Part shown: positions 8,956 through 47,300 of the stretch, in pieces
Numbering within the stretch: position 1 is the first letter of the stretch
How the letters are laid out: every line of letters starts with the position of its first letter
Assembly (NCBI GenBank): GCA_958450365.1
Contig: CAUEEP010000890.1
Span: 700,501 to 764,500 of the forward strand
DNA length: 64,000 nt
Direction: 5' to 3'
Origin: Mesorhabditis belari
Lineage: Eukaryota > Nematoda > Chromadorea > Rhabditida > Rhabditidae
Notes under the pieces: model-generated
What the model was told of the DNA's origin: nothing
What the model saw: the letters and a program-made list of their open reading frames with translations, nothing else
Databases searched by the model: none
Program-made: the position numbers and the translations under genes

Positions 8956-9259
8956 ACATAAAAAAATATTCAATTACAATCGTCTTCTTTGGTTTATCTT
9001 TATCTCTGTGATATCATTTTTTAAGTTTTAAAAAATGTTCAACTTACGGGCGGTTATGGAAGCTTTTCTCGTGGAAACGATTTATTTAAAATATTAATTT
9101 TAATCAATTTCTTCGAAACACTCCTTACATTCAAAACGACAAAAAATGGCAGATCGCCGTGGGGCGCTTGCGGCGAGTTCATTCCAAAGTCCAGGAAAGA
9201 TTAAAAATTAGCTTTGGCTGAAAAAACTTTAATAAATGAATGGTGCTGAGAATTAGAGC

Positions 9260-9605
9260 TTTCAAATGATATATAATGCTTACAAATGGTATATAATGCT
9301 TACAAAAGGTAGATAATGCTTTCAAATGATATATAATGCTTTCTAATGGTATATAATGCTTTTAAAAGGTATATAATGCTTACAAATGGTATATAATGCT
9401 TTTAAAAGGTATATAATGCTTACAAATGGTATATAATGCTTTTAAAAGGTATATAATGCTTACAAATGGTATATAATGCTTTCAAATGGTATATAATGGT
9501 TTCTAATGGTATATAATGCTTTCTAATGGTATATAATGGTTTCTAATGGTATATAATGCTTTCAAATGGTATATAATGCTTACAAATGGTATATAATGCT
9601 TTCAA
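9260..9605. repeat. Minisatellite, 20-bp unit
   Basis: About seventeen units of TACAAATGGTATATAATGCT with variants (TTTAAAAGG, TTCTAATGG) lie in the intergenic stretch downstream of the secreted-protein gene. The flanking 8956-9259 shows nothing recognisable. Confidence 0.9.
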
Positions 9606-10668
9606 ATATAATCAAATATCTCTTGCATTTTGGCATTTCGAATTTCATCTCAAATTTCAAAATTCTATTTCTATTTATTGAAATTGAAATTGAAATTGAA
9701 TTTGAAATTTGCAAATTTCAGCTTACCCAGCTTTGAACCAAGTACTGAATTAAGAAATTAGAAAAATAGAGAGAGAACTTTGGTGCTTTTTAATGCATCC
9801 TCTAGAATCTGAAATATGAAAGAAATAAGAAGTTATGGGCAGACAAAGCCAATCTAAATCATGTCAACTCTGACACGGGAATGACCAGAGCTGGCCGTAA
9901 AATCTCGACCTGAAAATCTCGACTCAAGTTCATTCGGCGCGTTCATTCCAAGGTCCAGAAACTGAAACAAACATATTGGAGATGACTGGAATTTCTAAAA
10001 CGAAAGAACCTCTCCTTGAACTAACCATGGGATTAACTTTGAATAAATCTCGAAAAAGAGGGATAGCTTGCCTGCTCTTTACAATTTTAAAACATTCAAC
10101 TAATTTATTTATCTTTAAACATTCAATTAATTTATTTCTAATTAAACATTCTATTTAAAACATTCTAAACAGCAGTAGCAATTTTTAGGGAAAAAAAAAT
10201 AGCGCAAAGTATTAGATTCGAAATTCTAAAACCTTTTTTTGAGTCTTAATTTCAGTGAAGATCAAATTTTAAAGAGGAAACTAAGAGTATCTGAAGATCT
10301 TTTAACGGGGATCATTTTTGATCCTTTATGATAACTCTAGATCATCCAGATTTAAGAGAATGCAATGAATATGCGATGAAATAAATGTAATATGTTTACA
10401 TTTATCTGGTACTTTCAGCTACAGATAGCTGAGCTTTACCCAGATCTACAGTTATCAAAAGAGCCGGAGCTTCAATTCACAGTAATTCCTGATAGCCAAG
10501 AATTGAAAGTCTTGTTCTTAAATCAATCTCGGAAAAGAAAGAATTCGATGTGTGTCGTTTTTGAGAGACGAAAAAAGTATGTCCTTGAAATCGTGATCCA
10601 CTGGGAACTGGGAAAACCATTTCAATGAACAGACTTTTCACTATAACCATTTTTCTAGATTTTTTTAA
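9606..10668 (+). other. Intergenic with one possible orphan exon
   Basis: No gene is recognised. At about 10419-10578, a TTTCAG acceptor, 53 open codons starting LQIAELYPDLQLSKEP and a GTATGT donor look like an internal exon on the plus strand. I find no partner exons and no family. Splicing it to the Mpl start exon would put an in-frame TAA just before the ATG, so it is not an N-terminal extension of Mpl. A similar short motif (NxSRKR) occurs near 10045. It may be a decayed gene. Confidence 0.3.
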
Positions 10669-13600
10669 ATGCATGTTCACATTTTGGGCATTTGTGGGAC
10701 ATTTATGGGCTCAATTGCCTTATTGGCCAGGTAAAATCGCTAAGAGCAGTCGTTTAAATGTTCAAAAAAGCTTATAAACTTAAAAAACAACTTCAATTAC
10801 AATTTTTATCTAAAATTCGATACTGAAATCTTGTCTATGAATCATAAAACATTCAGAGAACTTGGCCACAAGGTGACCGGTGCTGATGAAAACTCTCATC
10901 CACCAATGAGCACAATGCTTGAAGCACATGGCATTGAGATCATATCTGTAGGTTTCTTTTTAAACATTGAAACTTGAAAAGCTTTACTTTAGACAAGTTT
11001 AGACAAGTTTAGACAAGTTTAGACAAGTTTAGACAAGTTTAGTCAACTTTAGACAACTTTAGTCAACTTTAGACAAGTTTAGACAACTTTAGACAACTTT
11101 AGTCAACTTTAGTCAACTTTAGTCAACTTTTTACAGAAACTATTCCCTATTTCAGAACTATTCCGTATCTCAACTAACTCCAAGACCCGATTTGGTGATC
11201 GTGGGCAAAACGAGAGCTCTAGCTAGAGGCAATCCGATCATTGAATACATAATGAATGAGAAGATTTCATTTGTTTCTGGACCGCAATGGATATATGAAA
11301 GTATTTTGAAAGATCGTTGGGTGATCGCTGTTTCGGGAACTCATGGGAAAACATCAACCACATCGATGATCGTGTGGATCATGGAGAAAGCCGGCTTAAA
11401 CCCCGGGTATTTGATAGGTGAGTCGAAAGACTTATGTTGATTTTTGATAGTCGAATATTGATTATGAGATTTTTACTTTAACCTCCAGCATTGACTCGAT
11501 CTCTCCCATAAGTTTTAGCAAAACAAAAAGCAAAAATGTCTACAGCGGGCGGCTCTGGAGACAGACACTCTAACGATTGTGCCAAAAAGCTGAAAAGCAA
11601 TTAAAGTTGAAGAGATTTAAAGCAAAAACAAGTTCGGAAAGGACGAGAATCGTACCTGACAGCCTGCTTAAAGTGAGGGTAATAAATGGAGGGTAAAAAT
11701 CGAGCCCGATTCCAAGTGGGAAAATATTTCACTTGGAATCGGCCTCGATTTTTACCCTCCCTTTAAGGCAATCGTTTTGTAGACGGACAAAAACCACTTC
11801 GATCACTCCCGCCGAAGACAAAAACCGGCGTGGCTAAGTGGTTTTTCTGATTTTTACGGGGTTTGGCTGGGTCCTTGAAAAACCGAGGGAACCAATTTGA
11901 ATCTCGTACCGGATCGTACCCATATCCGCAGCAGGTCTCCAAGGTGAACAGCCTCTAGTCGATCGAATAATGTAGGTAAGGGAAGTCGGCAAATTAGATC
12001 CCGGATACGGAGATTTGTACTCTTCTGAGTGCATCGGGCGGTAACGCAAATGAACTCGGTGACACCTAGCTAGGCCCGAGCCAGAGTTCTCTTCTCTGGT
12101 TAAGGAACGGACTCGCTGGAAACGGTTCAGCCGAAGATAGCGACGTTGTTTCCGTAAAGCGTCACGGTTTCTGTGGCGTCTCGTGCGCCTGGCTGGGTCC
12201 TTGAAAAACCGAGGGAACCAATTTGAATCTCGTACCAGATCGTACCCATATCCGCAGCAGATCTCCAAGGTGAACAGCCTCTAGTCGATAGAATAATGTA
12301 GGTAAGGGAAGTCGGCAAATTAGATCCGTAACTTCGGGAAAAGGATTGGCTCTAAGGACTGGCCTGGTCGGGCCGTGGCATGAAGTGGGTACGGCTTGAT
12401 CGGGGCTGGGTGACGCTTTTGTGGAGCTTGGCCTCGTGTCGGGACTGTCCCGTGGACTGCCGTGGACTGCCGCGGCTGCGTGCATGGTCTTTGGGCTGTG
12501 TGCTTCGGCCGGCGTGAAACAGTCGACTTAGAACTGGTACGGACACGGGGAATCCGTGGCTAAGTGGTTTTTCTGATTTTTTTACGGGTTTTTGATGAAA
12601 AACCTATTTTGCCCAAAAGTATTTGTCTTTTTATTTTTAATTTCCTATCGATTAAAAAAAAGTTTGTTAAAATCGGTTCATGGGGAGCCGAAATCCCAGA
12701 GTGTGACGAACAGACGGACGGACGAACACTTCTCTTTTATATATAGTAGATAGAATAGATTACCGTTTGACTTTTCGTTCGATTACCGTCGATTTTTCGT
12801 TTGGATTCCAGGCGGTGTCCCTGTGGGCCTTCCTGGTTCAAGTCGTCTCAGCCAAGAATCACCATATTTTGTGATCGAAGCCGACGAGTATGGGACGGCT
12901 TTTTTCGATGAACGCCCAAAGATGTTGCTTTATTACCCGAAAACGCTGATCATTAACAATCTTGAGATGGATCACGGGGATTTCTATGAAACATTAAAGG
13001 AGATCGAGATCCAGTTTGATAATCTCGTCAAGTAAGTTTGATAATGATTAAGCTATGATTAAGAACATTCTGAGCTATGATTTGTCTCGTCGAGCACGTC
13101 GAGCTATGAATAAGAACATTCTGAGCTATGATTCGTCTCGTCGAGCTCGTCGAGCTATGAATAAGAACATTCTGAGCTATGATTCGTCTCGTCGAGCTCG
13201 GCGAGCTATGAATAAGAACATTCTGTGAATCTCTTATTTTATTGAATCTCTATTAGAATGATCCCAAGCAATGGATTGATTGTGCATCCAACTGGAAGTG
13301 CTGCAATTGATAGAGTGATTAGTGATGGATGCTGGACGAGAAGGGAGACAACTGGAGGAAATGGAAAGTTGGAAAATGAAAATGGAAATAGAAATAGAAA
13401 TAGAAATAGAAATAGAGCTCTTATTTGATCATTTCCTTATTTTGTTTTTAGTTGGACAACAAAGCTTCTCTTGTCTGATGGTTCTTCTTTTGAAGTCTTT
13501 CAAAATGGGAAACTTCAAGGAAAAATTGAATGGGATTTGATTGGAGATCATTTTGTTTCAAATTCTCTCTCTGCTATTGCCGCTGTCAATCATATTGGTG

Positions 13601-15193
13601 TAAGGTAAGTGATTTAAATGACTATTACTATTTAAATGACTAATAGAGAATAAAATTTAAGCTCTACTATCTCAATTTAGCTCTGCTATCTCAATCAACG
13701 CTCTACATTCTTTTAAGCTTCCTAAAAGAAGATTAGAAAAGGTAAAACAAAGCTAGAAGTTTAATAACTAACAAAGCAACAAAGCAACAAAGTAACAAAG
13801 CTAAAAAACAATAAAACAATAAAACAACAAAGCAACAAAGTAAAAAAGCTAAAAACAACAAAACAATAAAGCAACAAAGCTAAAAAACAACAAAACAACA
13901 AAACAACAAAGTAACAAAGCTAAAAACAACAAAACAACAAAGCCACAAAGCTAAAAAACAACAAAACAACAAAGCAACAAAGCTAAAAAACAATAAAACA
14001 ATAAAACAACAAAGTAACAAAGCTAAAAAAACAACAAAACAACAAAGCCACAAAGCTAAAAACAACAAAACAACAAAGCAACGAAGCTAAAAAGCATCAA
14101 AACAATAAAACAACAAAGTAACAAAGCTAAATGTTTAATAAACAACTAAAAAAACCGATTTAGTTTGGTCAAATCGGAAATATCGAAATTATTATTGATT
14201 ATGGTCATCATCCAACCGCATTTCAAGCTAATTTAAAAGCATTACGAAATAAATATGGAAAAGATACAAAAATCTTTACGGCTATTGATCCATCAACTGG
14301 TTCACTCAAGTAAATTATACTATTTTCTTTTTAGATTTAAAAGATTAGGCTTGGAATTCACCAAGACACAATGCTAGAAAGCACAAAAGAAGCCGATTTT
14401 GCATATTTTTGGAAAACGGAAAAACTTCATTGGGATATTGAGAGAATTAGGAGACAATGTGAAGAAGATTGTCGATTTGAGGTCAGTCGAGAATCGTCAG
14501 TCAAGAATAGTTTAAGCTGCTTAGTTTAATTTGTGTTTATCTTTTAGATCTATTCATCAGTTGAGGAAATTATTGATCATTTCCTGAAATCAATCAACAA
14601 CAATGTGACTGAAAGAGTGATTTTCATTGCTTTCACGTGAGTAAACTGAGAAATCAGCTTTAGCTTAGGCTTAGGCTTAGGCTTAGGCTTAGGCTTAGGC
14701 TTAGGCTTAGGCTTAGGCTTAGGCTTAGGCTTAGGTGCAGGCTCAGGCTTAGGCGCAGGCTCAGGCCCAGGCTCAGGCTCAAGTTCAGCTTAGCTTTAGC
14801 TTTTAGCTTTAGCTCTTAGCTTTAGCTTTAGCTTTCAGCTTTAGCTTTTAGCTTTCGGCTTTAGCTTTAGCCTTTAGCTTTAGCTTTCAGCTCTTAGCTT
14901 TAGCCTTTAGCCTTTAGCTTTAGCTTTTAGCTTTAGCTTTAGCCTTTAGATTTTAGCTTTAGTTTTAGCTTTAGCTTTAGCTTTCAGCTTTCAGCTTTAG
15001 CTTTTAGCTCTTAGCTTTAGCTTTCAGCTTTAGCTTTAGCTCTTAGCTTTAGCTTTAGCTTTTAGCTTTAGCTCATTTTTTAACTTATTTTCATCAATCA
15101 TCATTTAGATCTTTTGCTTTTGACAATCTACCACAAAAACTCTTTAAAAACTTACAAGATGGAGTCACAGGAAATGAGAAAAAAGAGCTTTAA
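10669..15193 (+). CDS. mpl-like: Murein peptide ligase (Mpl)-like protein, intron-split; horizontally acquired bacterial gene
   Basis: Eleven exons join in frame to 470 codons: 10669-10730, 10857-10947, 11156-11417, 12812-13031, 13257-13367, 13452-13604, 13681-13741, 14164-14309, 14349-14481, 14548-14636 and 15109-15193. Bacterial Mpl (about 450-460 residues) joins L-Ala-D-Glu-meso-DAP tripeptide to UDP-MurNAc with ATP during peptidoglycan recycling. Residues 1-20 start MHVHILGICGTFMG, the Mpl hallmark (MurC has GIGGAGM). The ATP loop GTHGKTSTT is at 112-120, EADEYGTAFFD at 161-171, NNLEMDH at 187-193, a basic KRRLE at 315-319 and DYGHHPTA at 332-339, all in Mur-ligase order. The usual Gly-rich C-terminal motif is replaced by TSFAFDNLPQKL. 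Exon 5 uses a weak GTTGGA donor. The ATG lies 10 bases after TTTTCTAG, a likely trans-splice site, and AATAAA is at 15205. Introns carry four minisatellites and 28S rDNA. The animal substrate is unknown. Confidence 0.9.
10985..11135. repeat. Minisatellite (TAGACAAGTT / TAGTCAACTT)n
   Basis: About fifteen 10-bp units in intron 2 of the Mpl-like gene. Confidence 0.9.
11690..11762. repeat. Long hairpin
   Basis: GGAGGGTAAAAATCGAG..CCGATTCCAAGTG and its reverse complement (CACTTGGAATCGG..CTCGATTTTTACCCTCC) face each other across about 12 bases, just upstream of the rDNA insertion in intron 3 of the Mpl-like gene. Confidence 0.85.
11829..12588 (+). pseudogene. Rearranged 28S rDNA fragment inserted in an intron, flanked by 33-bp direct repeats
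   Basis: Sense-strand large-subunit rRNA sequence fills about 11863-12555, with blocks such as GGGTCCTTGAAAAACCGAGG, AGGTGAACAGCCTCTAGTCG, GGAAGTCGGCAAATTAGATC and GTCGACTTAGAACTGGTACG. The order is scrambled. A copy of the GGCTGGGTCC..TTAGATCC block (11863-11999) precedes an upstream segment (12000-12186, CGGTGACACCTAGCTAG..GTAAAGCGTCACGG), which then continues colinearly into a second copy of the same block (12187-12330) and on to 12555. The whole is bracketed by a 33-bp direct repeat (starting CGTGGCTAAGTGGTTTTTCT) at 11829 and 12555. It lies in intron 3 of the Mpl-like gene. It is too short and rearranged to be a functional rRNA gene. Confidence 0.85.
13050..13230. repeat. Tandem repeat, about 52-bp unit x3
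   Basis: Three units of GAGCTATGAATAAGAACATT..TCTGAGCTATGATTCGTCTCGTC lie in intron 4 of the Mpl-like gene. Confidence 0.85.
13742..14135. repeat. Minisatellite (AACAAAGC / AACAAAAC)n
   Basis: About 390 bp of A-rich units (AAAACAACAAAGCAACAAAGCT) in intron 7 of the Mpl-like gene, between the short exon 7 and exon 8. Confidence 0.9.
14655..15075. repeat. Minisatellites (AGGCTT)n and (TTTAGC)n
   Basis: A 6-bp array GGCTTA grades into TTTAGCTTTAGCTC units in the last intron of the Mpl-like gene. Confidence 0.9.
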
Positions 15194-15965: not shown

Positions 15966-17985
15966 ATGCCGGCTGGTTTAAAAGCTTTTACAAGTGAGGG
16001 AGTGGTTGCCGATGTGATCCCCGTTCCACCAAAATGTGTCCTTGATGTCTCCTACAATAGTGGGGCAAAGGTTTGCGAAATATTCTTATAATTGTTTCCT
16101 TTGCTCAAGTTTTGTTTTCTTAAATTATAGACCGATTTTGGAAATGAATTGACGCCGACCCAAGTCAAGGACAAGCCAACAGTCACCTGGGAAAGCGAGG
16201 CCAACGCTTTGTACACCTTGATTTTGACGGGTAATCGACTTTGGATTTAACGATTCTTATATACAGTCGACTCTCGATTTAACGATTTGCTCGGGAGCAA
16301 AAATTTAGATTTAACGATTCTAAAACGTGCCCTGAACGGCCAGCGCTGAGCACCTACGCAGAGACGCAATCTTCGCTATTCAGGGCACGCAGAACCGCCC
16401 GTTGGTTGTTCAGGGCAGCTACGCAGAAGCGTTCGTTGGCCGTTCAGGACAGCTACACAAAACCGAATTGTTGGTCGATCAGGGCAGCTACGTAGAGACA
16501 CAATCTTCGCTATTCAGGGCACGCAGAAACACCCGTTGGTTGTTCAGGGCAGCTACGCAGAGAGGCAATCTTCGCTATTCAGGGCACGCAGGAACACCCG
16601 TTGGTCGTTTAGGGCAGCTACGCAGAAGCGCTCGTTGGCCGTTCAGAACAGCTACACAAAACCGAATTGTTGGTCGTTCAGGGCAGCTACGCAGAGAGGC
16701 AATCTTCGCTATTCAGGGCACGCAGGAACACCCGTTGGCCGTTTAGGGCAGCTACGCCGAGACGCAAGCTTGGCCATTCAGGGCAGCTACGCAAAAGCAA
16801 GGGCGTGGTTTAGAATTTAAAAATCGTTGTATCGACTGTATGTCGAATAAAAATAAAGAAAACCAAAGCCCTAGAAAGGCCCGATTTCAGATCCGGATGC
16901 GCCATCTCGAGCGAATCCAGCTATTCGTGAGTGCATGCATTGGGTTGTTGTAAACATTCCCGGCAGTCACGTGGATCAAGGTGACGAGGCGGCCGAATAT
17001 ATTGGATCTGGAGCTCCAGAGGGCACCGGTTTGGAAAATCGGAAATCCGAATATGCAAATTGGGAAGAGCTTTAGGCCTTCACCGTTACGTTTTCCTTCT
17101 ATACAAACAAAACGGAAAAGTCGATGCTGGTTTTAAGGTGAAATTTTTGAAAACATTTATTTGAGAATATACAGGGTGACCAGAAATAACGTTGCGGCCT
17201 AATTTAGCCTATTTTTTTAAAAATCCAAAAAGACTTTGTGACAGAAACAATTTTTTATTAACAACATGACATAAAGAGAGCATAAAATCGACTTTTCTTC
17301 AAAGTGGCCACCTTTGGCTCCGATGCAGAGCCTCAAACGCTTGATGAAATTTTCGGCGATGGGCCGCTGCTCGGCCGGAGTGATTCGATCCCATTCCCTG
17401 GTCAACGATCGCTTAAGAGCCTCCAAACTTTTGTGGGGTTTTGCACAAACCCTTGCCTTCAAAATTAACCAAAGGCTGTAGTCCAACGGATTGAGATCGC
17501 ACGAATACGGAGGCCATTCCAGGTCGAGATGAAATCCGGAAAGTTTGTCCTACACCAGTCCTGTGTGGATTTGGCTCGATGGAAGGAGCGGAGTCTTGTT
17601 GGAAGTTCCAAAATCCGTTACCAAAATGCTGTAGCCCATGGAAGATCTGCCGAAAATCCCGCAACGTTATTTCTGGTCACCCTGTAGAACTGAAAGTTAG
17701 AGTGTAGAAAATTTATTTTTTAACTTTACTTATTCATGCCATTCTTACAATTTGTTGAAACGAAATAGCGTTGTTTCTAAGTAAACTTTTTTAGATTCGA
17801 AAAAACTCCGCTGAGGGCCGAAAAAATTGGAGTGCTGCCGCTTTTGCTGAAAAACATCATTTAAGCTTAGTGGCCGGGAATTTCTATCAAGTAATCAAAG
17901 ATATAAATCAACAAAACTTTCAATTTTTCAGGCTCAATACGATGATTATGTGCCCATTTTGCACAAGCAACTTTCTGGACAGTAA
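15966..17985 (+). CDS. Phosphatidylethanolamine-binding protein (PEBP/RKIP family)
   Basis: Six exons give 184 residues: 15966-16070, 16131-16230, 16891-17028, 17076-17137, 17795-17890 and 17932-17985. PEBPs are small cytosolic proteins that bind anionic phospholipid headgroups and modulate kinase signalling. The N-terminus [14 protein letters not shown], the pocket motif DPDAPSR (residues 69-75), HWVVVNIPG and the second motif GTGLHRYVF (about 113-121) are diagnostic, and length fits the family. Exon 3 to 4 is a 47-bp intron. Acceptor TTTTAG lies 5 bases before the ATG, so a trans-spliced start is likely. Intron 2 holds a transposon carrying a GC-rich minisatellite, intron 4 a mariner relic, and a SINE lies about 32 bp after the stop. 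The match to C. elegans PEBP proteins such as F40A3.3 is from memory. Confidence 0.92.
16261..16845. mobile_element. Non-autonomous pogo/Tigger-like element enclosing a GC-rich minisatellite
   Basis: The ends are ATACAGTCGA..CGATTTAACGATT and AATCGTTGTATCGACTGTAT, which are inverted and flanked by TA. Between about 16330 and 16800 is a minisatellite of 45-60 bp units around GTTCAGGGCAGCTACGCAGA, much GC-richer than its surroundings. It lies in intron 2 of the PEBP gene. The superfamily is inferred from terminal sequence type only. The open frames inside are repeat artefacts. Confidence 0.65.
17172..17684 (-). mobile_element. Internally deleted mariner element
   Basis: A 513-bp element with near-perfect inverted ends CAGGGTGACCAGAAATAACG at TA sites. 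The minus strand encodes only the C-terminal third of a mariner transposase: [37 protein letters not shown] and a final AKGGHFE. At least two frameshifts separate these blocks. It sits in intron 4 of the PEBP gene. Confidence 0.85.
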
Positions 17986-19257: not shown

Positions 19258-22200
19258 CTATTTCTTGAACTTTTGTCCAGCTTTAAACCACTTCTCGGCT
19301 CCTTGATTTTCAGCGAAAATCTAGAAATTTGATTGAATTTGATTGAATTTGGTTGAATTTGGTTGAGTTTTATTGAATTTGATTGAATTTGATTGAATTT
19401 GGTTGAATTTGATTGAATTTGATTGAATTTGATTGAATTTGATTGAATTTGATTGAATTTGGTTGAGTTTTATTGAATTTGATTGAATTTGGTTGAGTTT
19501 TATTGAATTTGATTGAATTTGGTTGAGTTTTATTGAATTTGATTGAATTTGGTTGAATTTGATTTGATTTGGTTGAATTTGATTGAATTTGGTTGAGTTT
19601 TATTGAATTTGATTGAATTTGATTGAATTTGATTGAATTTGATTGAATTTGGTTGAGTTTTATTGAATTTGATTGAATTTGATTGAGTTTGATTGAATTT
19701 GATTGAATTTGGTTGAGTTTTATTGAATTTGATTGAATTTGATTGAATTTGGTTGAATTTGATTTGATTTGATTGAATTTGATTGAATGACATCTAATGT
19801 AAATCTAATTTTAAAATTTATATAAAACTTGTAATTGGAGTCTTTTTTTTGGAGTGATTGAAGTCTTTACCTCTTTTCCTGATTCACTTAATGCTAAAAT
19901 TTTGAAGGTTGACGGGAAGAGCCAAGCCGCTTGGTTCTGGATTCGAAGCTGGTAGTAGCTAGAAAATCCACAATAAAACATTGATTTATTTAGAATATAT
20001 AGAATAGAGTATTTAGAATCCATGAATCTTCAAGAATCCTTGAATCTTCAAAAATCCATTATCCATTAATCCATTCTATCTCGAAAAACTTTACCCATTG
20101 TCCATTGGCTCAAAATGACCGGCATCAATGGCGGGTAGGCCGGCACGGGGACACGGTGGGACAAGGATATCCCAATCTTCTTCGGGTAAATCCTGAAACA
20201 AATCCTGAATTATGAATTTGTAAAATAGTAGATAATATTTAAATGCTGAAATATTGCTTATAAGAGATGCTATAAGAGATGCTTATAGATTCCTTTTACA
20301 AGTTAAACTTTTTCCTATTCATTCCTATTCCTATTCCTATTCATTACAAGTTAATTCCTATTCATTTCAAACCTTATTCGTGGTGAAAGCGATCCCGTAC
20401 ATCAATTCGGAATCATTTTGTGTGTAGAAGATCAATTTCTCACCGGCTTTCACTGGATAAAGCAATTGACGTTCTTTTGCTGAATCAATTTGATAAAAAA
20501 ATTCGATTTTAGTTAGAAACTCACAGGCTGGTATGCTGATTTTATGCAAATTCGTGTGATTTGGCTCTCCGACTTTTGGAGACCAATACTTTTCCTTTGG
20601 AACTGGTTCGGGCGCTGTTAATACCTCGGAGTCTTTTAGAGTACCACCGTATCTAAATCGAGTATTGTACAGAGTCAGGAAAAGTCGGATCTTTGTCTTA
20701 GTTCTCCTGGCTTGCTAGGCTAGGACCTGGCTTCTGGAAATTATCTTGCTTTTCTGACCTATTCTTTCTTTCTTTCCCCTTGGTTTTCCTTCTTTCTCTT
20801 GGTAGTTAAGGTAATGGATAGCTTAAGGTAATGATAATGAATTGGTTAGAGCAATTGCTCGGAAAGCAAAAGGCAAAAGGCGGATAAGCAAAAGCCCAGG
20901 TCGAGGGTTCAATCCTTTCTCTGGAAATCGACTTTTTCTTGCTAAACCCTTCACTTCTTTACTACATGAAGTGAACAAGAACATTACTTGAATGAATTAG
21001 ATTAGATTAGATTAGATCTTAACTTGAATGAATCGAAAAGTAAACTGACTTTTCGGGTAGAGACTCCTTTCCGAGTAGCTCTTGCAAGTCATCACGCCAA
21101 CTTTTCCCTGGAAAGTTTTTGTTTTTGCTACAATTGCTCAGCTCAGAATCTCTTTACCTGGGAAAACGATTTTCCCTCTACCATCCTCTGGGATAAAAGG
21201 TGAAATGGCTGACCAGAGAATGTTCATGAAACCAGGAGCATTGATCACAATGAACTTGAAAATTGAAGGATAAAGTTGAGTTAAAAGATTCAAAATTTGA
21301 TACTGATTGAGATTTCTATTAGCGAATAACTATTTCACCTTATCAATCCATTCTCGATAGTGCATCGCCATGAGTTCCCATGAGATTCGGAAAGGGCCTA
21401 AAGCACAAAAGTATGGTAACTCACAAATCAGCATTAGTTTGAAAGCTTAAAATTATTAAATACAATAGCAATAGTTAGTTAAACAACTAAATACTTAAAT
21501 TTTAAGTACTTAAATCGCATTCTTAACTACTAATCGCATTCAAGTCATTAAAAAAGTCTATAAAGTCGAAATTCGATCTAAAGAACCCTAAATTTGGTCC
21601 CTAAACGCTTAATAAAATGTTAAGAAACAATGTTCGATATAAAAAACTTCGATACAACGAATACTTCGATCAAAAGAACACTTTTTGAATACGTTAACGC
21701 CTATTTCATTTCCTTACAACGAATTATTTACTAAGATTAGGGCAAAACATTTCTGCGATTTCTGCTTTTTGACTGAATATCTCATTTTTTTTTCTACTGA
21801 ATTTGAAATGTTTTAAAATGAGTTTGCTTACTTCTTGCTTCAAGCTTGTTTACAATTAGCTTGCTTGCTTACAATTAGCTTGCTTACTTACAATTAGCTT
21901 GCTTGCTTACAGCTAGTTTGCTTCTTGCTTGCTTACAATTAGCTTGCTTGTTTACAACTAGCTTGCTTGCTTGCTTACAATTAGCTTGCTTCCTTGCTTA
22001 CAATTAGCTTGCTTGCTTGCTTACAATTAGCTTGCTTCCTTGCTTACAACTAGCTTGCTTGCTTGCTTACAATCAGCTTCCTTACTGCTTTACGCAATCT
22101 TTTTTTTATCTTAAGTGTGCTTAATGTAAAGTTTTCTTTTTTATTCTTGAATTTTTGAGAACATTTTTATATTTTAGGTGATGGAGCGAGACGATCAATC

Positions 22201-33267: not shown

Positions 33268-34553
33268 CAGGGTGGCTGATAATTACGTGCGCCAAAGAAA
33301 ACGCCATAATTTAATTTTCTTTCAAAGAAAATGTAAAAATCTTTATTTATATAATAGTTGTAACAAAAGCATTTAATAATCACAAGAAATTTTTGAAGTG
33401 GCCTCCATCCGCTTTGATACAGGCTTCAATTTGCTTCTTTACAGAATCGACGGTGCGGCGGAGATAATTTGCATCTAAGTCGTTCCAGATTTTGATCAAT
33501 TCTCGACGTAAATCATTCAAATTGGTGATTTTTCTATTTCTCAATTGTTCTTCCATAAAACCCCAAACCGAAAAGTCCAACGGATTGAGATCCGGGCTGT
33601 TTGCAGGCCATTGATCCTTCGTCAAAAAAGAGCCAATTTTGGTTTCGAGAAAGCGAATTGTTGTTTTGGCTCCGTGGGCCGGCGCCCAATCTTGTTGAAG
33701 GGTCAAATTGGGATGGCTCCTCTTCCATGGCACCACAGCTTTCTCGAGAATCTCTTTTTGATAGACTTTTGCGTTAATCTTCACATTTTTATCGATAAAA
33801 ACCAACGGGGTCTTGCCCGAAGCACTGATGCCACCCCAAACCATCAAACTTTTTGGAAACAGACCTTTTGTAGCGACTTTTCGTTTACGAGTGCTCTTGA
33901 GAGCTGGACTGAGAAGTTGACGGTGATTTTGTGAGTTTTTAGCCACTTCCAAGGTGAAAATCTTCTCATCTGACCAAAGAACATCGTCAATGCGCCGCAC
34001 CTTGAAAAAAGCTCGCAATTTCTTGCATTTCTCCTTCCGGTTTTCCTTGGCTTGATCGGTGAGCACTTGCCCGTTTAACAGTCGATAACTTCGAAGTCCG
34101 AGCTCATTTTTTACTATCGATTGAACCGAGAAACGCGAAATTTGAAGCTGTTTTGCCATCTTGTTCAAACTACGATCGTCTTTTCGCTCGATCCTCCTCT
34201 TGATGATCCCACGCATCTTTCGGGTGTTAACGGTCCTCTTTGGTCCTCTTCCGGGCTTGGACTGAACATGCCCCTCATCTTTCCATTGCTTTACGATCTT
34301 CTGGACGGTCCTCAGAGCCACCCCAAGCCTCGATGCGATCGACGAGTTCTTCATGCCACTCGTCGCCAGCTGTGCGATTGCGTCCCGACTAGCGCACGTC
34401 TTTGTCATGACCTAGAAAACAACTTTTTTAACAAAAAATTATTAGACCACGATAAAAAGAATATTAAAACACAAAAAGATGAGTAGTAATGCTTTATACA
34501 TTGTTTAAAACTATGATGCTGATGCTGCGCGCACGTAATTGTCAGCCACCCTG
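33268..34553 (-). mobile_element. Complete mariner-family transposon (DD37D)
   Basis: A 1286-bp element flanked by TA (33266-33267 and 34554-34555). Its inverted ends CAGGGTGGCTGATAATTACG and CAGGGTGGCTGACAATTACG differ by one base. It encodes one uninterrupted transposase on the minus strand. It looks recently active. The outermost bases CAGGGTG match the deleted mariner at 17172-17684. Confidence 0.93.
33380..34408 (-). CDS. Intact mariner transposase, DD37D catalytic triad
   Basis: This single-exon frame of 342 residues fits full-length mariner transposases. The N-terminal half holds two helix-turn-helix segments (SSIASRLGVALRTVQKIV; SRFSVQSIVKNELGLRSY) separated by a GRGPKR hook. The catalytic Asp residues are in WSDEKIF, LQQDWAPAHG and NSPDLNPLDFSVWG. 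Thirty-seven residues separate the second and third Asp, which defines the DD37D (maT-like) group. The C-terminus AKADGGHF-like motif reads IKADGGHFKNFL. It catalyses cut-and-paste transposition into TA. No stop or frameshift is present. Confidence 0.95.
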   Translation of the reverse strand: MTKTCASRDAIAQLATSGMKNSSIASRLGVALRTVQKIVKQWKDEGHVQSKPGRGPKRTVNTRKMRGIIKRRIERKDDRSLNKMAKQLQISRFSVQSIVKNELGLRSYRLLNGQVLTDQAKENRKEKCKKLRAFFKVRRIDDVLWSDEKIFTLEVAKNSQNHRQLLSPALKSTRKRKVATKGLFPKSLMVWGGISASGKTPLVFIDKNVKINAKVYQKEILEKAVVPWKRSHPNLTLQQDWAPAHGAKTTIRFLETKIGSFLTKDQWPANSPDLNPLDFSVWGFMEEQLRNRKITNLNDLRRELIKIWNDLDANYLRRTVDSVKKQIEACIKADGGHFKNFL

Positions 34554-44317: not shown

Positions 44318-47300
44318 TCAATACAAGCCACAACCTTGTAGATTCGCTTGAATGATCATGTCGATAACGGAATCCAGAATCATTTGCACTTGATTTGTGT
44401 CGGTGGCACAAGTCTGGAAGAGAGTATTTTAAAGCTGGATCTGTATTTTATATATTTTAGCTTTTGTTTTTCTTTCATAAAAAAGCAATCTAGCTCAAAG
44501 ATTAATCAAATTTTTACTCACGATTCATCACTATTCTTTTTTTCCCTTTCGACTCTTTGGTTCAAAGTTTGAACTCTTTATCTCTTACCAGGGAACCTTC
44601 CCAAGTTACCCGCGAGTTACAATATGAGGTAGGTGCAAAAAAGAAAGGCCTGAAAATGTACGTTCAGAAACTGTTTTCAAAAACCGCAAAATGCACAAAG
44701 TTACAGCCATTTGAATTTCGTAAAAAATCAAGGCTTTTCTCGAATTTCTGGCACACTGATTTTTGCCGGCGGAAAGGCCTTTTTTACGCCATCCCAGCTC
44801 GTAGCCTTCTTTATGATTCCATTCCAGGCCTTTCTTTTTGCACATACCTCATATTGTAACCCGCGGGTAACTTGGGAAAGTTCCCGGGTTGGTTTTCTCT
44901 GTCTTTATCTCTCTTAGTTTATCCTCTCCTTTCCCTTTCCCCACTTTAGTTCTTGGTTTTTCATTCTAAAAATTTTACATTGATTTTACAAAGAAAGAAA
45001 CTGTGAAAACCCCGGGAATCGAACCAGGACCTCGCTTACAGCCCGGTCGACCCTACAGCCAGACGCTCTACCCACTGAGCTACAGGCACTCTATTTCTCA
45101 GGCAAGAAAAAGGACACAAGAAGAGAAAAAGCGAAAGACCATAAGCTGTCTCTCGAAGAAGAAAGATCAAATTAAACTGTTTTCTAATAGAAGCCTTTCG
45201 TGTACCGTAATCTGTCTTGTCTACCGTAATCTTGTCTGTAGACCGTCATTTTGTCTCCAGTTTATCTAATTCTTTAAAAACAAATCCCTACTTTTCAGTT
45301 AAACTTGAATCTACCTGATGCATGTAGATCGTCTTCTCTGGATTCGCGTTCAACGCCTCGAATTTCTCCTCAATGTAAGCGACAGCTTCGTCGTAATTTT
45401 GAGCGCCTGAAGCGGGTTTTTTTTGTTTGTTATCTTTATTGGTAGAACTTTTTGAAGTGTTTTATGCAATGTGATTTACACAATGATATCTAGAAATTAG
45501 CATATGCTAATTTCTAGATTAGCATAAGACTAATCCATTCTAGAACTATTTATTTTAAAAAGTTCGTACCTTTATATTCGGGAAAAGCGACATTGATGGA
45601 CGACCGTGGGATCTTTTCGGCAAAGAGATCTTTTTTATTTAAAAAGAGAATCATTGAGGTGTTGATGAACCATCGTGAATTGCAAATTGACTCAAATAAA
45701 CGCATTGATTCGATCATTCGGTTCTGGAAAGGAAAGCATTCGTGACTTACCTTTTTGCGTACTTTGTACTTAAAAATGTAAACACACTTTCCTAGTGCAC
45801 TAAAAGCACAACTTTCTTGTAGTAATTGATGCAAAAGATGAAGGATTGAGTGCACCAGGAAAGGTGCGTTTTCAGCTGTGAGTACAAGATATTCTATAAG
45901 TACAAAATACTTATAACAAGTTATAAGCAGATGGTGGCGTCTGCTTCAGTCAGTGTGGCTGTCTCTAGAAGAAAAGATCTGGGTTCGATCCCGTTTCCCG
46001 GTGAACTGGTTTATGGTCCAGGAGAAGGCGAAGGCTGGATAGGCTTCTCGCATTACCCCAAAGGCCTTCTTCGCTTTCTCTTCGCCGCCAGAACAAACTA
46101 TCGTTCGATAAGAGTAAGGATTAGAGAGCTAAGAGTGTAGGAGTGGATTAAGTTAATAGACTAGTATTTTGTGTCGAATTGTGATGCCGAATAAACCAAA
46201 TCCGGCGTCACCGATGGATCTCTTTTTATATTTGTCTCACTCACCGTTGTCTCATCTTCAAATAAAACTTGATCGTATTCAGAAATGGCCGCAATGAAAA
46301 TGATTGCATTCACATCTTCAAAGCAATGAATCCATTTTTTACGCTCCGATCTTTGACCACCCACGTCGAAGACTCTAAAGTGATGCTTTAGGAAGATTTA
46401 GGAAGCTTTAGGAAGCTTTAGGAGGATTTAAGAGGCTTTAGGAGGCTTTAGGAGGCTTTAGGAAGCTTTAGGAGGCTTTAGGAGGCTTTAGGAAGCTTTA
46501 GGAGGCTTTAAGAGGCTTTAGGAGGCTTTAGGAAGCTTTAGGAGGCTTTAGGAAGCTTTAGGAGGCTTTAAGTGGCTTTAGGAGGCTTTAGGAGGCTTTA
46601 GGAAGCTTTAGGAGGCTTTAGGAAGCTTTAGGAGGCTTTAGGAAGCTTTAGGAGGCTTTAGGAGGCTTTAGAAGTCTTTAGGAAGCTGTGAAGTGAAGTC
46701 GATTCTCTATTCGACCTACTCAAGCTTTCTGCTTATTCTTTTGCTTATTGCTTAATTTATAGACATTTTCTTTTGAAAATAGACACTAAAATTGCCATTG
46801 TCTCACCTGAAGTCGACATTTTTCATTTGAAATTTCACTTCCACAATCCCAGTGGTCTTTATCCGACTCAACAAGATATCCTGCTCGGTGGGCTTGTAAT
46901 CGGGCAACGAAATTCGCTCCAATTGATCGAGGAAACTGAAATCGGTGGAGTTAGCGTTGAAAATAGATTTGCGCTTATAGATTGCTTACTATGGAGCGCT
47001 TTCCGTGAGCTGAAACTCGTTTCCTCGATGGCACGCATCGCGAACCGTTTTGTCGCCCCAAAGTGCTTTTAAAGCTTTCGCCAATTCAGGAGAGAATGGC
47101 TCAGACTCTTGACCGGCTTTCAGCACATCTAACACAGTTCGCGCGTCTGCCTGGAAATGAGAATTTTTGAAATTTTGAAATTTTAAAATTTTGAAATAGT
47201 AATGAAGATTAGTCATCAAATTGTTAAAAAACTTTCAAAGCCAATAATTTTTTTTTCCTTGATTTTCGTGCATTTTAAGCAGTTTTTAAGCAGTTTACAA

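What the first reader, a model, noticed from the sequence alone, without database searches (positions are those of the whole stretch)
10669..15193. A bacterial peptidoglycan-recycling ligase (Mpl) as an intact intron-containing nematode gene
Seen: eleven exons with consistent phases encode 470 residues that follow bacterial Mpl from end to end (GICGTFMG start, GTHGKT ATP loop, EADEY, NNLE.DH, HHPTA). No stop or frameshift was found, and there are acceptor and polyadenylation signals at the ends. Known: Mpl belongs to the Mur ligase family, joins muropeptides to UDP-MurNAc, and animals have no peptidoglycan.

Inference: an old transfer from bacteria, domesticated and under selection. It might act on muropeptides from food or gut bacteria, or on another substrate. 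I recall no described nematode Mpl. Diverged spots (EADEYG for EADEYD, loss of the C-terminal GGFGG) hint at changed chemistry.
Basis: partly seen in the sequence, partly recalled or inferred. Interest (0 to 1): 0.95.

Follow-up and report, generated by a model that had tools for sequence, protein, structure and literature searches.

The report
Bacterial cell-wall recycling ligase in nematode
A small soil worm carries, as a normal intron-containing gene, an enzyme gene that came from bacteria, where it helps rebuild the cell wall; the worm has no such wall, and the part of the enzyme thought to grip the bacterial peptide has changed, so it may have been given a new job.

Summary
Confirmed. Window 10669-15193 (+) holds an 11-exon, 470-codon gene with ten GT-AG introns. 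It scores 514 bits against the curated Mpl model (cut-off 389), but 219 against MurC (cut-off 335). A public Mesorhabditis belari protein is identical to residues 13-470. A second M. belari protein, on another contig, is 69% identical. Both are already public under an automatic Mpl name; my paper searches listed nothing on them.

A neighbouring gene also has introns, so contamination is very unlikely. The gene groups with proteobacterial, mostly gammaproteobacterial, Mpl; the donor family is unresolved. The two copies differ less at conserved sites, consistent with purifying selection; dN/dS and expression were not measured.

Against 308 bacterial Mpls, ATP/metal/catalytic residues are kept (14/15, 15/15), but proposed peptide-binding residues mostly are not (5/15, 6/15; no bacterial sequence keeps fewer than 11). 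Best reading: a domesticated, Mpl-derived ATP-dependent ligase with an altered acceptor, probably not a working muropeptide ligase. Nematode HGT and insect peptidoglycan genes are known; an animal Mpl with a rewritten acceptor site appears new.

The parts
10669..10730 (+). Exon 1: MHVHILGICGTFMGS..., UDP-binding GICGTFM motif
   Evidence: near-identical to bacterial Mpl N-terminus; public model P0001 lacks the first 12 residues
10857..10947 (+). Exon 2: N-domain, Asp31 and PPMST
11156..11417 (+). Exon 3: SGP loop and GTHGKT P-loop
12812..13031 (+). Exon 4: EADEYG, TAFFDERPK loop, NNLE.DH metal/adenine site
13257..13367 (+). Exon 5: middle domain
13452..13604 (+). Exon 6: middle domain, His282 and Asn286 adenine site
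13681..13741 (+). Exon 7: KRRLE (Arg316, Arg317)
14164..14309 (+). Exon 8: DYGHHPTA and the changed peptide-site motif DPSTG (bacteria mostly EPRSN)
14349..14481 (+). Exon 9: C-terminal domain
14548..14636 (+). Exon 10: C-terminal domain
15109..15193 (+). Exon 11: changed SNGGFGG region (TSFAFDN) and stop codon
15205..15210 (+). AATAAA polyadenylation-type signal
11829..12592 (+). Inside intron 3: duplicated and rearranged 28S rRNA pieces with perfect 27-nt direct repeats at 11829-11855 and 12555-12581
   Evidence: Rfam RF02543 at 11928-12282 and 12292-12592 (the second match runs 11 nt past the repeat); repeats
14665..14730 (+). Inside intron 10: perfect TTAGGC array (nematode telomere unit)
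   Evidence: 9 overlapping matches of (TTAGGC)3; mean 0.00 in 100 shuffles
15966..17985 (+). Downstream neighbour: 6-exon PEBP-family gene, showing the eukaryotic setting
   Evidence: PF01161, 69.2 bits against cut-off 24

Best explanation
A gammaproteobacterial mpl gene (class likely, family open) entered the lineage of Mesorhabditis belari, gained spliceosomal introns, duplicated, and has been kept in two apparently intact copies. The protein is most likely a three-domain Mur-type ligase that still uses ATP and magnesium to activate a carboxylate held by the N-terminal domain (possibly on a UDP-linked sugar acid) and joins it to an amine. [quoted passage not shown] Shown here: gene structure, sequence family, second copy, retained ATP/metal residues, loss of proposed peptide-site residues. 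Inferred: expression, catalysis, the altered acceptor and its identity.
For: TIGR01081 514 bits, above its equivalog cut-off. Identical public M. belari protein, and a second copy at 69%. Structure model of P0001 has pLDDT 87; best PDB match by E-value is Psychrobacter Mpl 3hn7, 2.9e-43. Residues that the 3hn7 paper assigns to ATP, metal and catalysis are kept 14/15 (copy 1) and 15/15 (copy 2). The residues it proposes for the peptide are kept 5/15 and 6/15, two of the kept ones (R358, H376) being ATP contacts as well. Control: of 308 bacterial sequences none keeps fewer than 11 of those 15 (304 keep 14 or 15), and for the ATP set the range is 13-15. The motif begins EPRS in 301 of 308 bacterial sequences (EPRSN in 265), and EPRSN is also present in Magnetococcus, Neisseria and Acinetobacter Mpl. 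At 139 columns 97% conserved in bacteria, 20 identical substitutions are shared by both copies, so they most simply predate the duplication (9 are in copy 1 only, 4 in copy 2 only, and at 8 both differ from bacteria and from each other). The copies differ at 21/139 conserved against 113/298 variable columns (Fisher p = 8e-7). About 8 nonsense changes would be expected among 136 neutral replacements; none is seen in either predicted copy.
Against: No RNA-seq, no dN/dS and no enzyme assay. The roles of the peptide-site residues are the 3hn7 authors' proposals, not shown with bound peptide. The Mpl-specific loop (S/T)AFFDKRSK is TAFFDERPK / TAFFDQRPK, and Tyr35 (proposed UDP-MurNAc pocket) is His in both copies, so the sugar side may be changed as well. 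The model is least certain, apart from its C-terminal tail, in that loop (pLDDT 59 for P0001 residues 151-160). Seven of 308 bacterial sequences also depart from EPRS, four of them without the Arg, so single changes there occur in bacteria. The stem branch is long (about 2 changes per column), which a spell of relaxed constraint could also explain. Gene predictors favour intact models, which weakens the no-stop argument.
Confidence: 0.6

Rival explanations
1. A working canonical Mpl: the worm ligates muropeptide tripeptides from digested bacteria onto UDP-MurNAc, as bacteria do, to clear or signal with peptidoglycan fragments.
For: Scores above the Mpl equivalog cut-off. UDP-diphosphate motif GICGTFM and Asp31 kept, ATP site kept. 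C. elegans gut physiology responds to bacterial peptidoglycan (PMC11021419, abstract and outline seen).
Against: Proposed peptide-site residues Glu402, Arg404, Ser405, Asn406, Asn484 and Gly485 (3hn7 numbering) are replaced in both copies. Animals are not known to make UDP-MurNAc (recalled). MurA/MurB partners were not looked for genome-wide: the genome search did not complete.
Confidence: 0.15
2. Catalytically dead but useful protein: the fold binds muropeptides or nucleotide sugars as a sensor or scaffold.
For: Changes in peptide and ND-MD contact loops; domesticated enzymes can become binders (general knowledge).
Against: Residues of the ATP and metal site (Lys116, Glu161, Glu164, His193, Arg317, Asp332, His335) are all kept in both copies.
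Confidence: 0.15
3. A relic that is decaying, expressed or not, with no function.
For: Intron 3 has taken in 28S rRNA debris and introns carry satellites; long stem branch; expression untested.
Against: Two predicted copies about 30% apart, both open over 458 codons, with less change at conserved columns (p = 8e-7).
Confidence: 0.08
4. Bacterial contamination or misassembly.
For: Apart from the two M. belari proteins, the named relatives listed are bacterial.
Against: Ten GT-AG introns with stops inside; intron-bearing PEBP gene about 0.8 kb downstream; public contig of 849,731 bp; bacterial identity at most 48% over 97-98% of the protein, or 52% over 85%.
Confidence: 0.01

Closest known systems
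Bacterial Mpl (murein peptide ligase; TIGR01081; structures 3hn7, 3eag; PMC3060825, passages seen)
   Same: Full-length colinear homology, three Mur domains, ATP and metal residues, GICGTFM, Arg75/Gly76, Tyr165
   Different: Host is an animal; introns; EPRSN, SNGG and AFFDKRSK motifs changed; second copy
MurC (UDP-MurNAc:L-alanine ligase)
   Same: Fold and ATP site; some MurC structures even superpose with a higher TM-score (0.81) than 3hn7 (0.70), though with worse E-values
   Different: 219 bits, under the MurC cut-off of 335; Mpl-type motifs
Horizontally acquired peptidoglycan genes of mealybugs and aphids (ldcA, amiD and others; PMC9116674, passages; PMC8689515, abstract and outline)
   Same: Bacterial peptidoglycan genes kept and used in animal nuclear genomes
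   Different: There they are tied to intracellular symbionts; no symbiont is known to me for M. belari, and the passages I read name no mpl
MurD, MurE, MurF, FolC and cyanophycin synthetase models
   Same: Distant similarity in the Mur ligase superfamily
   Different: 70 bits or less, far under their cut-offs

Membership tests
Mpl (TIGR01081) | Score above the curated equivalog cut-off | tested here: met
   514.4 against 388.7 bits, profile 1-447/448
Mpl (TIGR01081) | Three Mur domains in order (PF01225, PF08245, PF02875) | tested here: met
Mpl (TIGR01081) | ATP, metal and catalytic residues (GKTT, Glu178, Glu181, Asn205, His210, Gln223, Phe224, His323, Asn327, Arg358, Asp373, His376 in 3hn7 numbering) | tested here: met
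   14/15 and 15/15 kept; the single change is Thr116 to Ser in copy 1, where bacteria have Thr in 86%; bacteria keep 13-15
Mpl (TIGR01081) | UDP-side motif GI(C/G)GTFM, Asp31, Tyr35, Asn69, Arg73, Gly74 | tested here: inconclusive
   10/12 kept in copy 1; Tyr35 is His in both copies, Asn69 is Lys in copy 1; copy 2 could be judged at 6 positions only, 5 kept
Mpl (TIGR01081) | Mpl-specific (S/T)AFFDKRSK loop packing on SGP | tested here: not met
   TAFFDERPK / TAFFDQRPK; copy 2 has SAP for SGP
Mpl (TIGR01081) | C-terminal peptide-site motifs EPRSN(T/S) and SNGG | tested here: not met
   DPSTGS / DLSTSS and TSFA / SSSS; 301 of 308 bacterial sequences begin EPRS, 265 EPRSN
[quoted passage not shown]
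   needs an assay; so I call it Mpl-derived, not a functional Mpl
MurC (TIGR01082) | Score above the MurC cut-off | tested here: not met
   218.8 against 335.1
Functional horizontally acquired animal gene | Introns and host neighbours | tested here: met
   one neighbour worked out in full
Functional horizontally acquired animal gene | Expression | not testable with these tools
   RNA-seq exists (PRJEB61636, named in PMC10456839) but cannot be mapped here
Functional horizontally acquired animal gene | Purifying selection | tested here: inconclusive
   Protein-level pattern between the copies supports it; dN/dS not possible without the DNA of copy 2

The most novel reading that the evidence does not exclude
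An animal has converted a bacterial peptidoglycan-recycling ligase into a new amide ligase: ATP chemistry and the nucleotide-binding domain largely kept, peptide acceptor site rewritten, then duplicated, giving a bacteria-eating worm a nucleotide-sugar or muropeptide conjugation reaction not known in animals.
Probability: 0.35. Interest if true: 0.85.

Novelty: new variant of a known kind. Interest (0 to 1): 0.62.

Why it matters
Peptidoglycan-making and recycling genes in animals are known to me mainly from insects that house bacteria in their cells (recalled; PMC9116674, passages). Here one is kept in a free-living nematode with no such partner known to me, and many of the sites that change are the ones proposed to choose the substrate. 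If it is an active ligase, it gives a two-copy natural experiment on how an animal turns a cell-wall enzyme to a new reaction, in a worm that is cultured on E. coli and for which RNA-seq already exists.

Tried and rejected
Rejected: contamination (introns, neighbour gene, public 849-kb contig); MurC or another Mur ligase; chance assembly of exons (public model P0001 is letter for letter the same from residue 13).

Led nowhere: the genome search on the window's own assembly, so the DNA of the second copy, dN/dS, intron positions of copy 2, and a search for MurA/MurB, AmpD or other peptidoglycan genes in the genome were not obtained. The donor could not be fixed: the quick 91-row tree leaves the pair in a polytomy; the careful 63-row tree puts it beside Pseudomonas at 89/83, not starred; an AU test of grouping it with 9 Vibrionaceae/Enterobacterales-type rows gives p = 0.098, not rejected, and a second AU test (with Methylococcaceae) did not finish. 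Two betaproteobacterial Mpls fall among the gammaproteobacterial ones in both trees. A search with only the diverged C-terminal part (3 hits among 146 candidates) found the two M. belari proteins and one unnamed bacterial-type Mpl (P0233, which has EPRSN). I have no positive control that other nematode proteomes are well held in that database, and searches list only 120 of about 8000 matches each, so 'absent from other nematodes' is not claimed. Sequence sets are biased: the 308 bacterial proteins are the listed best hits (230 proteins) plus 78 of 80 loci (L062 and L070 dropped because my motif did not find their start). Those loci were fetched by patterns that force the EAD/AFFD motifs. Ten Pseudomonas loci were thinned out before the tree; the tree used 61 bacterial rows that I chose. 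Of 8 window proteins scanned with Pfam, 2 matched.
Full report
What is there. Joining the eleven exons at 10669-15193 gives 470 codons and a stop with no frameshift. All ten introns begin GT and end AG, and each holds at least one in-frame stop, so the exons cannot simply be read through. The protein scores 514.4 bits against the NCBIfam equivalog model for Mpl (cut-off 388.7), end to end, and only 218.8 against MurC (cut-off 335.1). Pfam finds the three Mur ligase domains in order.

Whose it is. A protein database hit is letter for letter residues 13-470: 'unnamed protein product, partial [Mesorhabditis belari]', 458 aa, on an 849,731-bp contig. The window therefore is, or is very near, M. 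belari, a rhabditid nematode kept on E. coli OP50 (PMC10456839, passages seen). The public model starts at Met13; the twelve residues before it, MHVHILGICGTF, are nearly those of bacterial Mpl, so the longer reading is better. That model shares all ten junctions. A second M. belari protein, P0002, sits on a 3.4-Mb contig and is 69% identical. A search with only the diverged C-terminal part returned just these two and one bacterial-type Mpl.

Not contamination. A six-exon gene of the phosphatidylethanolamine-binding family starts about 0.8 kb downstream, and a Tc1/mariner-type transposase frame lies further along (2 of 8 window proteins scanned there had a Pfam match).

Origin. In a 91-row tree the two nematode proteins form one clade (100) among gammaproteobacterial Mpls, in a polytomy. 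In a 63-row careful tree rooted on Magnetococcus they join Pseudomonas at 89/83 (not starred), inside a wider group with Oceanospirillaceae, Marinobacter and Acinetobacter at 94/96 (also not starred). An alternative with Vibrionaceae/Enterobacterales is not rejected (p-AU 0.098). So the source is most likely a gammaproteobacterium; the family is open. The stem branch is long (about 2 changes per column); the two copies' own branches are 0.46 and 0.30.

What changed and what did not. The paper on Psychrobacter Mpl 3hn7 (PMC3060825, passages seen) names residues for ATP and metal, for the UDP side, and, as a proposal, for the tripeptide. Against 308 bacterial sequences, ATP/metal residues are kept 14/15 and 15/15. 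The proposed peptide residues are kept 5/15 and 6/15; two of the kept ones are ATP contacts. As a control, the same count in each of the 308 bacterial proteins gives 11 to 15 for the peptide set (304 of them 14 or 15) and 13 to 15 for the ATP set. The motif starts EPRS in 301 of 308 (EPRSN in 265); the other seven are single variants, four without the Arg. EPRSN is also present in Magnetococcus, Neisseria and Acinetobacter. The nematode copies read DPSTGSLK and DLSTSSMK. SNGGFGG reads TSFAFDN and SSSSFDN. The Mpl loop AFFDKRSK reads AFFDERPK and AFFDQRPK. By domain (N, middle, C), 97%-conserved columns are kept 29/37, 56/71 and 16/30 in copy 1 and 30/37, 58/71 and 18/30 in copy 2. Over the 138 such columns used, copy 1 keeps 101 and copy 2 keeps 106; the least faithful bacterial sequence keeps 120.

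Selection. The copies differ at 21 of 139 conserved columns against 113 of 298 variable ones (p = 8e-7). Twenty identical substitutions at conserved columns are shared by both, so those most simply came before the duplication; 9 are in copy 1 only, 4 in copy 2 only, and at 8 both differ in different ways. About 8 stops would be expected among 136 neutral replacements, and neither predicted copy has one, though gene predictors favour intact models. This is evidence for constraint, not a dN/dS.

Structure. AlphaFold on P0001 with 53 relatives gives pLDDT 87. The best solved match by E-value is 3hn7 (2.9e-43, TM 0.70), then Neisseria Mpl; several MurC structures have a higher TM-score (0.80-0.81) with worse E-values, so the fold supports a Mur ligase but does not by itself separate Mpl from MurC. 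Apart from the C-terminal tail, the least certain block is P0001 151-160, the changed loop.

Mechanism. Mur ligases make an acyl phosphate from a carboxylate with ATP and let an amine attack it. The kept residues are those for this step; the lost ones are those proposed to hold the peptide. I therefore favour an active ligase with another acceptor (0.6), over a canonical Mpl (0.15), a non-catalytic binder (0.15) or a relic (0.08). The substrate is a guess: the N-domain keeps its diphosphate-binding motif, but Tyr35 is His in both copies, so even the sugar may differ.

Novelty. Bacterial peptidoglycan genes in animals are known from mealybugs and aphids (PMC9116674, passages; PMC8689515, abstract). 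My paper searches listed none on an mpl in a nematode or other animal; I saw their listings, which are capped, and the library lacks most subscription papers. The sequences themselves are already public with an automatic name.

Noticed in passing
11829-12592 (intron 3): Two pieces of 28S rRNA (Rfam RF02543, 11928-12282 and 12292-12592), with a 138-nt block duplicated at 98% and perfect 27-nt direct repeats at 11829-11855 and 12555-12581; a 36-nt hairpin sits just upstream (11683-11765). Looks like inserted, rearranged rDNA.
   Followed up: partly
14665-14730 (intron 10): Perfect array of TTAGGC, the nematode telomere unit (recalled), inside an intron, with a degenerate TTAGCT array at 14790-15073. 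The genus undergoes programmed DNA elimination (PMC13370393, passages), so an old break-and-heal scar is one possibility.
   Followed up: partly
window, e.g. 4-364, 1242-1634, 9258-9607, 13770-14131, 19326-19788, 46385-46687: Very many unrelated minisatellites (TRF lists 141 rows, some overlapping), several inside the introns of this gene.
   Followed up: no
33380-34411 (-): 343-aa open frame of a Tc1/mariner-type transposase; DDE_3 and HTH_23 pass their Pfam cut-offs, HTH_SB (Sleeping Beauty) does not.
   Followed up: no
16350-16785: Tandem repeat of a GC-rich 65/199-nt unit inside intron 2 of the PEBP gene.
   Followed up: no
L081:179-2171: In Magnetococcus massalia, mpl lies directly after ampD on a 40,543-bp plasmid typed as non-mobilizable: two recycling genes side by side.
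   Followed up: no
L073: A locus titled Pseudomonas stutzeri groups with Enterobacterales, not with Pseudomonas, in both trees; the record may be misnamed.
   Followed up: no
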